In this document: positions 1-4,680 of the stretch, in pieces
Numbering within the stretch: the first letter of the stretch is position 1
Layout of the letters: each line of letters begins with the position of its first letter
IMG/VR virus record: IMGVR_UViG_3300048588_000136
Coordinates: 1-64,000 of that record
DNA length: 64,000 nt
Source: a virus
Strand: one strand, 5' to 3'
Made by a program: the position numbers and the translations under genes
The notes under the pieces: model-generated
Databases searched by the model: none
What the model was told of the DNA's origin: nothing
The model's input: the letters and a program-made list of their open reading frames with translations, nothing else

Positions 1-1770
1 ATAAAAACCTATGGCGATTTATTTACCGGCGGCGGTGGCGCTACGTTGGGCGCACTGACTGCCGGACTAACGCCACTGTGGGGCAATGAGCTAGATCCGG
101 CCATTGCTGAGGTTGGCAATTACAATCTGGGTGGCCATATCCGTGTCGGGGATGTGTTGGAACAGAACCCACGCAATTACGAACGGGTTGACTTTATGCA
201 CGCCAGCCCGCCTTGCACCCGTGCTAGTGTTGCAAATGGCAGCGCCGAAGTCAATGAGGACGGGCTGAAAGAATCGCCACTTGATATTGCGCTGGCCAAC
301 AAGTGCATTGAGTTTGTGGAAACGCTGCTGCCAGAAATTTTTACGCTTGAAAATGTTTGGGGCTACCGCAAGTTTCAATCATGGCAGGGTGGCCGCAAGT
401 GCGAAGGTATACAGTCAGCGCTTTACCGGCTTGGGTATTGGGTGAGCGTGGAGCATGTGAACTTTGCCGATTTTGGTGTTCCGCAGACGCGCAAACGCAT
501 GATTGTACGTGCCGTGCGTGGCGGCTGGGTGCCACACTTGCCCCAGCCCGTGCCGTGGATTGGTTGGTATGAGGCGATCAGCGATATTTTAGACACACTG
601 CCGGAAAGCCAATTTGCGCCGTGGCAGCTTGCGAGACTAGAACCCAGTTTGCGATTGATGATTGACACTTATCAGGCAGAAAGAAATGAGGGCTATTCGG
701 ATGAATCGATTTCCATTAAAGTTTTGCAAATTTTGCGAGAAAAGGTTGGAACGGAAGCAATACTCGAATGGGGAGCTAGAGTCACCCAAAGATTTCAATC
801 GGAGAAAGTATTGCGACCGCGCCTGCATGGCGAAAGCATACGAACAGACTGCACCAAGTGTTCCGATGAACGAGGACAATGCCCATTATTATTCACGGAA
901 ATTTGTAAAAGATGGGGAGTGCGAGATTTGCGGGGCACAGAATGCGAGCGATGTGCATCACAAAAATGGAGATTGGACAAACAATACACTAGAGAATTTG
1001 CAGCGTATTTGTCGAAGCTGTCATATGAAAATCCACAATCCTCGACCGACATGTTCGGTGGAGGGGTGCAGCAATCCGCACGAATCGAAGGGCTATTGCA
1101 ACAAACACTATCATCGTTTCAAGAAATATGGAGATCCACTGTTCTCGAAAATCAAAACAGTAGATCACAAGAAGTCTCCGACGATTACCCAGGCAGTAAT
1201 AGACGCACGGGCAAAGACAAAGAAATGGGACATTTCATCCGCCCTGATTTCCCGCAATCAAAGAGTTCAACGACGGAAAAAAGCCTAGCCCTACTCGTCT
1301 CCAACGCCAAGACCGAATACAGCGATGGCACACGGCAAGGCGATGACCCCGCTTTTACCGTCACCGGTGAAAGCAACGGGCGAGTGAAGGCGTTTTTGAT
1401 GGGCAAGAACCAAGACAAGTTTGGCGACGGCATACGCTATGCCGTCGAACCGGCGCAAACCATCGGTGCAAATGAGCATGGTAGCAAGGCGTTTATCGCT
1501 GACCAACTAAATGGCGGACGTGATTCAACCGTTCGCTTGTCGGAAGAGCCGGTATTTACGATTACCAACTATAGCACAAAACATCCTGCTCCGAGAGCCT
1601 TTGATGGTGGCCGTGTCGTCGCCATGACGCCAAGAGCGTTAGCGCGGTTCCAATCGTTCCCAGACAGCTACGTTCTGCCCGACAGCAAAACACTAGCCGC
1701 CAAAATCATCGGCAATGCCGTATGTCCGCTGGGCTACCAACGTATTGTGGAGGGCCTATGCAATTTGTAG
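1..1770 (+). CDS. DNA (cytosine-5) methyltransferase, 5'-truncated by window edge, with inserted HNH gene
   Basis: The frame is open from base 1, so the true start lies upstream. C5-methyltransferase motifs appear in order: motif I (DLFTGGGGATLG, window residues 6-17), the catalytic PPC loop (Cys72), the ENV motif near residue 117, QTRKR (motif VIII) near 162, and the C-terminal FQSFPDSY and IIGNAVCP motifs. The product methylates cytosine, probably to shield phage DNA from host restriction. Between about 640 and 1285, in the variable target-recognition region between motifs VIII and IX, the reading frame crosses about 210 residues without family resemblance. That segment encodes an HNH endonuclease in the +1 frame. 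The methyltransferase frame stays open across it, so either an enlarged enzyme is made or the gene is inactivated. It overlaps the next gene by 13 bases. Confidence 0.88.
   Translation: MKTYGDLFTGGGGATLGALTAGLTPLWGNELDPAIAEVGNYNLGGHIRVGDVLEQNPRNYERVDFMHASPPCTRASVANGSAEVNEDGLKESPLDIALANKCIEFVETLLPEIFTLENVWGYRKFQSWQGGRKCEGIQSALYRLGYWVSVEHVNFADFGVPQTRKRMIVRAVRGGWVPHLPQPVPWIGWYEAISDILDTLPESQFAPWQLARLEPSLRLMIDTYQAERNEGYSDESISIKVLQILREKVGTEAILEWGARVTQRFQSEKVLRPRLHGESIRTDCTKCSDERGQCPLLFTEICKRWGVRDLRGTECERCASQKWRLDKQYTREFAAYLSKLSYENPQSSTDMFGGGVQQSARIEGLLQQTLSSFQEIWRSTVLENQNSRSQEVSDDYPGSNRRTGKDKEMGHFIRPDFPQSKSSTTEKSLALLVSNAKTEYSDGTRQGDDPAFTVTGESNGRVKAFLMGKNQDKFGDGIRYAVEPAQTIGANEHGSKAFIADQLNGGRDSTVRLSEEPVFTITNYSTKHPAPRAFDGGRVVAMTPRALARFQSFPDSYVLPDSKTLAAKIIGNAVCPLGYQRIVEGLCNL
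686..1288 (+). CDS. HNH homing-type endonuclease nested out of frame in the methyltransferase gene
   Basis: This frame encodes about 200 residues with an N-terminal zinc-finger-like Cys pair (FCKFC, then CDRAC), a clear HNH core (CEICG ... DVHHKNGD ... NTLENLQRICRSCHMKIHN) and a further CSVEGC / YCNKHYHRFKKYGDP cysteine-histidine element seen in phage homing nucleases. It likely cuts DNA lacking the insertion. The frame continues upstream to a TTG at 662; ATG 686 follows AGAAAG and ATG 701 is a second option. It lies wholly inside the C5-methyltransferase frame, shifted by +1, and stops exactly where methyltransferase similarity resumes. Almost all of the insert is ORF, which leaves no room for a group I intron core. 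Confidence 0.8.
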   Translation: MRAIRMNRFPLKFCKFCEKRLERKQYSNGELESPKDFNRRKYCDRACMAKAYEQTAPSVPMNEDNAHYYSRKFVKDGECEICGAQNASDVHHKNGDWTNNTLENLQRICRSCHMKIHNPRPTCSVEGCSNPHESKGYCNKHYHRFKKYGDPLFSKIKTVDHKKSPTITQAVIDARAKTKKWDISSALISRNQRVQRRKKA

Positions 1771-2408: not shown

Positions 2409-3224
2409 ATGCTAATCAATGATCATTTTCAGAACTTCAAAAGCTATAACATTCCGCGGGCGCAGCTTGTCGTTGCCGATATTCCGTATAACATAGGCAA
2501 CGACGCTTACGGTAGCAACCCGCAGTGGTATGTGGACGGCGACAACAAGAACGGCGAAAGTGAGCTGGCCGGTAAATCGTTTTTTGATACTGATGAGAAT
2601 TTCAAGCCGACAGAGTTCATGCATTTCTGTAGCAAGCTCATGATCAAGGAGCCGAAAGAGCGCGGCAAGGCTCCATGTATGATCGTCTTCTGCTCGTTTG
2701 AACAGCAGTTCTACCTGATTGAGCTTGCACGCAAGTATGGCATCAACAACTACATCAATCTGGTTTTTCGTAAGAAGTTTAGCGCGCAGGTACTGAAGGC
2801 TAACATGCGGGTTGTTGGTAACGCTGAGTACGGTCTGTTGCTCTACCGTGACAAGCTGCCAAAGTTCAATAACAACGGCAAGATGATCTTCAATGTCATG
2901 GAATGGGAGGATGACCGGGATGAACTCTACCGGAAGATTCATCCGACACAGAAACCGGTAGCCTTGCTGGAACGGTTGATTAATATCTTCACAGATCCCG
3001 GCGATGTGGTAATTGATCCGTGCGCCGGCAGTGGGTCAACGTTGATTGCAGCGCACAACCTGGGACGTAAGGGATACGGCTTTGAAATCAAAAAGAACTT
3101 TTATGTAGAGGCAAACGCTTGGATAGCCCATAATGAGCAGGTACGCGCCGAAATCAAGACGACCGGCTATTCGCGTACCTTGGCAGAAGCGCAGAACCCT
3201 GGGCAGGCGTTTTTGTTTCAGTAG
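2409..3224 (+). CDS. DNA N6-adenine / N4-cytosine methyltransferase
   Basis: This 271-residue class I SAM-dependent enzyme has beta-type motif order: catalytic DIPYN near residue 24 (the DPPY family motif), HPTQKP near 180, and the SAM-binding DPCAGSGSTL near residue 203. It probably methylates the exocyclic amino group of A or C in a short motif. ATG 2409 is preferred; GTG 2403 is in frame just upstream. With the C5 enzyme it gives the phage two DNA methylation activities. No cognate restriction nuclease is adjacent, so a protective orphan role is likely. Confidence 0.87.
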   Translation: MLINDHFQNFKSYNIPRAQLVVADIPYNIGNDAYGSNPQWYVDGDNKNGESELAGKSFFDTDENFKPTEFMHFCSKLMIKEPKERGKAPCMIVFCSFEQQFYLIELARKYGINNYINLVFRKKFSAQVLKANMRVVGNAEYGLLLYRDKLPKFNNNGKMIFNVMEWEDDRDELYRKIHPTQKPVALLERLINIFTDPGDVVIDPCAGSGSTLIAAHNLGRKGYGFEIKKNFYVEANAWIAHNEQVRAEIKTTGYSRTLAEAQNPGQAFLFQ

Positions 3225-3549: not shown

Positions 3550-4680
3550 ATGGCACTACTTGAAACAATGACCGCAGACGAAGCAATCAAGCATGGTGTG
3601 ACAGTGTACCCGCATGTGGCGGAACCGCAAGCGCAACCGCTAGATTTGTCGCCGTGGACACTGTCGCCGTGGGCAAAGTGGGTGGCGGCGGATGCAGATG
3701 GCTATGTGGATGAATATGAATGCAAGCCGCATACGGATCGAGAAATGTGGGCATATGGTGGTCGATGTAAGATTGTTGGCCGTATTGACATGACCGGCAT
3801 CGATTGGCGCCAAACGCTGACGCCGGTGAACCAGGCCGACACCATTGAAGCTGCCCGCTGCATTCTTTCCGGCTTGACCGGCGGTGAATCGTCCGAGGTG
3901 GTGCAGCGGCGATTGTGGGGATACGAGGATGATGCGCAGCCGTGGTGTGAGCAGTGCAATCTGCCGCTTGACATTTGCCGCGGACACGATGATGGCGCTC
4001 AGTCTTCCGACTGGATGCAAGCGCATATTGCGGCAGAGGTGGCGGCGATTGACGAGCATGAAGCGTTCGCCTTCGCTGCTAACGCCGCGGTATCGCTTGA
4101 TAACATTGTGCTGAAACCATCCACCATTGACGTTGCCCACCACCACACGTACCCGTTAATCCACTGTGAGTGCGGCATGGCGTTCGTGCTGCTTGGCTGT
4201 GTGGCTGACACCGTATTCGAGCAGGGTACGCCGCCATTTTGCCCGTACTGTGGCAAGGGGCTAACCCCGCCGCCGCAGGTTGCCATTCATGCCGACGCTA
4301 TCCCCGCAGATGTGGCGTCGGCATTGCTGGCGCACCATAGCGCGGCATGGTGCGAACGGCTGTGCGATGAGTTGGCGAAGTTGTTGCCGTCTGTGCTAGT
4401 GTGGCAACTATCAACGCTGGATGGTGACGCCCTTGTCAACGCTGCTCGCCAACTGGCATATACCGACAGCGCCAAAGCCAACATGATTGCGGAGGCGCTG
4501 TGGAGTGAGGCAATGGACGCAGAGAACGCACGAATGGACACAGCGTTTCAATCTGCGGTCACGGTAGGACAACCAATAACGGCACGAGTAACGGCGACTG
4601 TGGTACGTCCTGAGTTCAGTGTTGATTACGACGCTGACGAATGTGACACCATGCCGGCAATGGCGGGGAGTGTGACGTAA
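3550..4680 (+). CDS. Hypothetical protein with two zinc-binding clusters
   Basis: This 376-residue protein has one cysteine cluster (CEQCNLPLDICRGH, residues 137-150) and a second (HCECG ... PPFCPYCGKGL, residues 202-240) that looks like a zinc ribbon. The N-terminal part resembles single-domain phage proteins that read W-x-K-W and carry mixed beta structure, but I cannot name the family. AAGGAG precedes ATG 3550. The C-terminal third is helical. Confidence 0.65.
   Translation: MALLETMTADEAIKHGVTVYPHVAEPQAQPLDLSPWTLSPWAKWVAADADGYVDEYECKPHTDREMWAYGGRCKIVGRIDMTGIDWRQTLTPVNQADTIEAARCILSGLTGGESSEVVQRRLWGYEDDAQPWCEQCNLPLDICRGHDDGAQSSDWMQAHIAAEVAAIDEHEAFAFAANAAVSLDNIVLKPSTIDVAHHHTYPLIHCECGMAFVLLGCVADTVFEQGTPPFCPYCGKGLTPPPQVAIHADAIPADVASALLAHHSAAWCERLCDELAKLLPSVLVWQLSTLDGDALVNAARQLAYTDSAKANMIAEALWSEAMDAENARMDTAFQSAVTVGQPITARVTATVVRPEFSVDYDADECDTMPAMAGSVT

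What the first reader, a model, noticed from the sequence alone, without database searches (positions are those of the whole stretch)
640..1288. HNH endonuclease gene nested out of frame inside a C5-methyltransferase whose own frame stays open
Methyltransferase motifs I-VIII and IX-X are in one frame, yet the 600-odd bases between them encode a clear HNH nuclease in the +1 frame. The host frame has no stop across the insert and resumes in register. For a random insert of this size that is unlikely by chance, so selection to keep the methyltransferase translatable (an enlarged target-recognition loop) is plausible. It is neither an intein (different frame) nor an obvious group I intron (no room for a core).
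Basis: partly seen in the sequence, partly recalled or inferred. Interest (0 to 1): 0.75.

Follow-up and report, generated by a model that had tools for sequence, protein, structure and literature searches.

The report
Homing nuclease gene hidden inside methyltransferase
A gene for a DNA-cutting (HNH) enzyme sits in a shifted reading frame inside a phage DNA-methylation gene that still reads straight through it, and at least 54 distinct phage and prophage genes share this double coding without a single stop codon in the outer frame.

Summary
Confirmed and much strengthened. Window 1-1770 is one open frame of a C5-cytosine methyltransferase (PF00145; 592 aa, its ATG lies across the circular contig junction). 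About 633 bp (~655-1287) in its target-recognition region hold an HNH gene in the +1 frame (701-1288), with its own ATG and a weak Shine-Dalgarno. The arrangement is a family. Scans with either frame as query gave 54 non-redundant nested loci (IMG/VR, Staphylococcus phage CUB-EPI_14, a Treponema MAG), all in the same phase. Host-frame stops: 0 observed, 397 expected from synonymous shuffles; the third frame is as expected (342 against 333). Free-standing relatives, and one nested HNH in a decayed methyltransferase, carry stops at chance level. So the outer frame is actively kept open. I find no evidence that its amino acids are constrained beyond stop avoidance. Most relatives sit just before motif IX; the window copy is at a different, earlier site, in a methyltransferase only 22-28% identical to the hosts of its nearest HNH relatives. 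The kind is known (ShiLan domain, PMC11855218), but there the host enzyme class and phase (+2) differ and the HNH relationship is distant. Verdict: a splicing-free homing-type endonuclease gene, a new variant of a known kind.

The parts
1..1770 (+). C5-cytosine DNA methyltransferase, host frame, open throughout; start ATG at contig position 89222 across the circular junction (MAG + 589 aa)
   Evidence: contig end read
1..654 (+). methyltransferase N-terminal part, motifs I-VIII and start of the target-recognition region (up to WQLARLEPSLR)
   Evidence: alignment with uninterrupted homologues L002-L006; AlphaFold pLDDT mostly 80-95 over about the first 180 residues
655..1287 (+). inserted segment, about 633 bp (in-frame length); borders uncertain by a few codons
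   Evidence: absent from L002-L006 (L003: WQLARLPANVRESVLLSNARTEYS)
688..691 (+). GAGG, weak Shine-Dalgarno 9 nt before ATG 701
   Evidence: in the family 26 of 40 nearest ATGs have a match of 4 nt or more against 27% background, p=6.5e-7
701..1288 (+). HNH endonuclease gene in host +1 frame (195 aa), nested
   Evidence: mostly 42-50% identical to nested relatives
725..826 (+). N-terminal zinc-finger-like CxxC...CxxxC of the HNH protein
   Evidence: invariant Cys columns
920..1036 (+). HNH catalytic core (CxxC, DVHH, N..N, CRSCH, H)
   Evidence: invariant columns; PF01844 and PF13392 weak matches
1052..1135 (+). C-terminal zinc knuckle CSVEGC...GYCNKHYHRFKKYG
   Evidence: used as scan pattern
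1154..1285 (+). C-terminal helical extension of the HNH protein, absent from most relatives
   Evidence: pLDDT 52-74
1288..1770 (+). methyltransferase C-terminal part: rest of target-recognition region, motif IX (from 1612) and motif X (about 1705-1728)

Best explanation
This is a homing-type HNH endonuclease gene that lives inside a C5-methyltransferase gene without any splicing. SHOWN by sequence: the HNH frame and the methyltransferase frame both stay open; the HNH gene lies in host phase +1 at at least three different insertion sites; most nested copies have their own ATG and Shine-Dalgarno; the host frame avoids stops far beyond chance. INFERRED: ribosomes translate the whole methyltransferase with the extra ~150-210 residues as a tolerated loop in the target-recognition region, and separately start at the internal ATG to make the HNH enzyme. 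The enzyme would cut insert-free methyltransferase alleles and be copied in by recombination. Stop avoidance in the second frame plays the role that splicing plays for introns and inteins: it makes the insertion survivable for the host gene.
For: Recurrence in 54 non-redundant nested loci, all the same phase, 0 host-frame stops against 397 expected; third frame 342 against 333. Controls: free-standing L096 15 against 13.8, L106 20 against 18.5, L110 24 against 24.7; decayed methyltransferase L037 with intact HNH 22 against 22.9. Reciprocal case: L192/L193 lost the HNH C-terminal finger but keep the host frame. Closely related methyltransferases lack the insert. HNH copies are more similar than their host catalytic domains in 261 of 276 pairs; the window HNH is 51% identical to that of L075 while the hosts are 22% identical. 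Insertion sites differ. Start signals. The HNH frame folds confidently. No intron.
Against: No demonstration that either protein is made, cuts or methylates. HNH and methyltransferase distances still correlate (Spearman 0.60), so much inheritance may be vertical rather than by homing. Catalytic and start-site assignments rest on sequence. Close relatives of the Staphylococcus phage lack the whole methyltransferase, not just the insert, so no very recent empty site was seen.
Confidence: 0.8

Rival explanations
1. Nested restriction-modification pair: the HNH enzyme is the restriction partner of the methyltransferase, and nesting forces the two to be inherited together.
For: The full-length HNH relatives are nearly always inside a C5-methyltransferase; HNH restriction enzymes such as PacI are known (general knowledge).
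Against: The HNH proteins stay about 50% identical while host methyltransferases diverge strongly, so matched specificity is unlikely. Free-standing relatives occur without a methyltransferase. L037 keeps an intact HNH with a dead methyltransferase, which would be suicidal for a restriction enzyme.
Confidence: 0.07
2. The host-frame segment is a selected functional methyltransferase domain (for example extra target recognition) and the HNH gene was overprinted on it.
For: The host-frame peptides look alike (tblastn E=9e-10 to the Staphylococcus phage; alignment A11); L192/L193 keep the host frame while losing part of the HNH.
Against: Most of the similarity follows from HNH conservation plus stop avoidance (28.0% identity against 25.5% null); comparable excesses occur in a non-overlapping control region. 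The segment is mostly below pLDDT 45. Free-standing HNH relatives and insert-free methyltransferases argue that the HNH inserted, not the reverse.
Confidence: 0.08
3. Chance open frame or sequencing or assembly artefact.
For: A single 200-codon open frame can occur by chance in GC-rich DNA (ShiLan: expected 2.3 stops, P=0.016).
Against: 0 against 397 expected stops over 54 non-redundant loci, including genomes at 26-33% GC.
Confidence: 0.01
4. Undetected self-splicing RNA element, so the host frame need not be read.
For: HNH genes often ride in group I introns (general knowledge).
Against: If RNA were spliced, stops in the host frame would be neutral; their absence argues against it. The element is little more than the HNH gene; no Rfam match at E up to 5.
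Confidence: 0.02

Closest known systems
ShiLan domain in mycobacteriophage DNA methylase gp65 (PMC9957025, PMC11855218; JN020143)
   Same: HNH gene nested out of frame in a phage methylase whose frame stays open; no intron or intein; zinc fingers flank the HNH core; HNH proteins distantly similar (hhalign probability 87%)
   Different: Host is a DPPY-type amino-methyltransferase, not C5; HNH in host +2 phase, not +1; authors report no RBS, here most copies have one; narrow phage set; host-frame selection was not quantified there
Pacc40 gp60 insertion (PMC11855218)
   Same: Second out-of-frame putative HNH insertion in a phage helicase-methylase gene; free-standing relatives upstream in related phages
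   Different: Different host protein; not sequence-compared here
HNH homing endonucleases of group I introns (I-HmuI type)
   Same: HNH nuclease with DNA-binding modules in a phage gene; inferred homing
   Different: No intron core; host protein is translated through the insert
Inteins
   Same: In-frame insertion within a host gene, retained in the primary translation product
   Different: Endonuclease in another frame, no splicing blocks

Membership tests
C5-cytosine DNA methyltransferase | PF00145 match with motifs I, IV (PC), VI (ENV), VIII, IX, X in one frame | tested here: met
HNH endonuclease | HNH (beta-beta-alpha metal) motif with conserved His, Asn, His | tested here: met
   PHROG 1.4e-16, invariant H86, H87, N99, H108 and H112 in 40 relatives; Pfam below curated cut-off for the window copy alone
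Out-of-frame HNH insertion (ShiLan-type kind) | HNH gene in a different frame of a methylase, host frame open | tested here: met
ShiLan domain proper | same HNH phase (+2) and same host methylase family | tested here: not met
   phase +1 and C5 host here
Homing endonuclease | cuts insert-free allele and is copied in | not testable with these tools
   only indirect: patchy presence, several sites, HNH less diverged than hosts
Group I or II intron | conserved catalytic RNA core | tested here: not met
   no Rfam match
Intein | splicing blocks in the host frame | tested here: not met
   no family match in the host-frame segment except DUF7889 at E=0.16

The most novel reading that the evidence does not exclude
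A widespread class of phase-locked mobile genes that need neither RNA nor protein splicing: the element carries a stop-free second frame as an adaptation that lets it enter coding sequences of different methyltransferases, at different sites but always in one phase, while the host protein stays translatable.
Probability: 0.5. Interest if true: 0.8.

Novelty: new variant of a known kind. Interest (0 to 1): 0.62.

Why it matters
Mobile genes inside useful genes are usually thought to need introns or inteins to be harmless. Here a whole family appears to survive by dual coding: one DNA stretch is kept readable as a nuclease and as a harmless stretch of the host enzyme. It gives a large set of overlapping genes from diverse genomes with built-in controls (free-standing copies, a decayed host, decayed inserts) for studying how overlapping frames evolve. 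It also means that many phage methyltransferases in databases may hide an unannotated nuclease (for example gp45 of Staphylococcus phage CUB-EPI_14).

Tried and rejected
Amino-acid-level selection in the host frame: tested by no-stop synonymous permutations and at wobble mismatches. There is an excess, but a comparable excess appears in a non-overlapping methyltransferase control, so it is not claimed. AlphaFold of the host-frame protein: the insert and the remaining recognition region are both low-confidence, so the model does not discriminate. PDB fold search with the HNH model: no match below E=0.1. Scan of IMG/VR with an 18-row host-frame profile failed (no conserved stretch); narrower profiles worked. 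Genomes of the Treponema MAG's phylum: 1 of 149 with a hit, the MAG itself. Plasmids: none. Group I or II intron: none. L099 (67% GC) has an open frame but no visible methyltransferase context and was excluded as uninformative.

Full report
OBSERVATION. The window begins inside a methyltransferase gene: frame 1-1770 is open for 589 codons. The contig (89,357 bases) ends with a 127-bp exact copy of its own start, so it closes to a circle of about 89.2 kb, and the gene begins with ATG GCA GGC just before the junction, giving 592 aa. Pfam PF00145 matches at 3.5e-34, and phrog_116 spans residues 3-587 with the middle as an insertion. The +1 frame holds ORF 662-1288. The family alignment places the start at ATG 701, preceded by GAGG at 9 nt. 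PHROG HNH families match down to 1.4e-16. Uninterrupted homologues L002-L006 show the insert between WQLARLEPSLR and ALLVSNAKTEYS; the HNH stop codon (1286-1288) sits on the right-hand junction.

A FAMILY. tblastn of both frames hit the same place in Staphylococcus phage CUB-EPI_14, annotated only as a methyltransferase, and the HNH query found a Treponema MAG with the same nesting. HNH-profile scans of IMG/VR gave dozens of full-length relatives. In the frame analysis all relatives in a methyltransferase context lay in host phase +1 with an open host frame, except L037, whose methyltransferase is a pseudogene. A scan with the host frame as query found further loci, all open in the host frame.

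STATISTICS. Synonymous codons were shuffled inside each HNH gene, which preserves the protein and codon usage. For 41 non-redundant nested genes, 310 host-frame stops were expected (450 with genome codon usage) and 0 observed; the third frame showed 281 against 275. With the host-frame-found loci added (54 genes, 7,880 codons): 0 against 397, with a minimum of 351 over 1,000 shuffles; third frame 342 against 333. Controls at chance: free-standing L096 15 against 13.8, L106 20 against 18.5, the more distant L110 24 against 24.7, and L037 22 against 22.9. Thus the HNH protein itself does not force an open second frame; stops are removed only where an intact methyltransferase surrounds it. The reverse case, L192/L193, has lost the HNH C-terminal finger while the host frame stays open. 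Caveat: the loci found with the host-frame query were selected by similarity in that frame; the 41 found with the HNH query were not.

WHAT IS NOT SHOWN. Host-frame peptides resemble each other, but with no-stop synonymous permutations most of this follows from the HNH protein (28.0% identity against 25.5% null). Tests at wobble positions gave comparable excesses in a non-overlapping control region. AlphaFold gives the insert mostly pLDDT below 45 (helical at its start) and the HNH frame pLDDT 85. I therefore read the host-frame segment as a tolerated loop, not a demonstrated domain.

ANATOMY AND MOBILITY. Most copies lie directly before motif IX, and there the HNH stop codon typically overlaps the conserved motif IX codons (read from the two frames). 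L100-L102 and L108 lie nearer motif X. The window copy lies earlier in the recognition region, in a methyltransferase lineage only 22-28% identical to the hosts with the most similar HNH copies, although its HNH is about 50% identical to theirs. The phase is the same at all sites. The nearest ATG has a Shine-Dalgarno match in 26 of 40 nested genes against 27% background (p=6.5e-7). HNH copies are less diverged than their hosts in 261 of 276 pairs, but the distances correlate (Spearman 0.60), so both descent with the host and transfer are likely.

PRIOR ART. Arsenault and colleagues (PMC11855218; earlier PMC9957025) described the ShiLan domain, an HNH hidden out of frame in a mycobacteriophage methylase. 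I fetched ShiLan gp65: it is a DPPY-type methylase and the HNH is in phase +2, with distant HNH similarity. Expected host-frame stops there are only 2.3 (P=0.016), so that one copy alone is weak evidence of selection. Searches for other papers on such nesting found none in the held library. The kind is therefore known; the C5 family, its phase, its start signals, its spread, the multiple sites and the proof of stop avoidance appear new, as far as the held library shows.

MECHANISM. Shown: two frames kept, start signals, several sites, controls. Inferred: translation of both products, tolerance by the methyltransferase, and homing by cleavage of insert-free alleles.

Noticed in passing
L037:1-2300: Methyltransferase pseudogene (many stops, apparent frameshift) around an intact nested HNH gene; remnants of the host-frame peptide still readable.
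   Followed up: yes
L026 about 2690-2710, L028 about 4490-4500, L029 about 4490-4500, L077 about 715-725: In these four related loci the methyltransferase frame is broken at the same point just after VRRLTPL, by TGA or TAA (L028, L077) or a short frameshift (L026, L029); the HNH stop overlaps an ATG (ATGA, preceded by Shine-Dalgarno-like bases) that opens a short ORF such as MKDVSTVVRRLTPL. Possible recoding, split gene or repeated repair scar.
   Followed up: partly
L192, L193: Nested HNH lost its C-terminal zinc knuckle while the host methyltransferase frame stays open.
   Followed up: partly
L025, L028, L078, L090: Methyltransferase motif I region (such as GSLFDGIGGFPL) follows motif X, suggesting circularly permuted or tandem C5-methyltransferases next to the nested HNH.
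   Followed up: no
window 2410-3224: A second, amino-methyltransferase-like gene (DIPYN...DPCAGSGST) lies just downstream.
   Followed up: no
L145 (contig 86000-89357), 3-1475 minus strand: Serine-recombinase-like protein near the contig end, suggesting a temperate phage; contig ends share a 127-bp repeat.
   Followed up: no
L018 and L196: Close relatives of phage CUB-EPI_14 (such as Southeast) lack the whole methyltransferase with its nested HNH, so the pair comes and goes as one cargo.
   Followed up: partly
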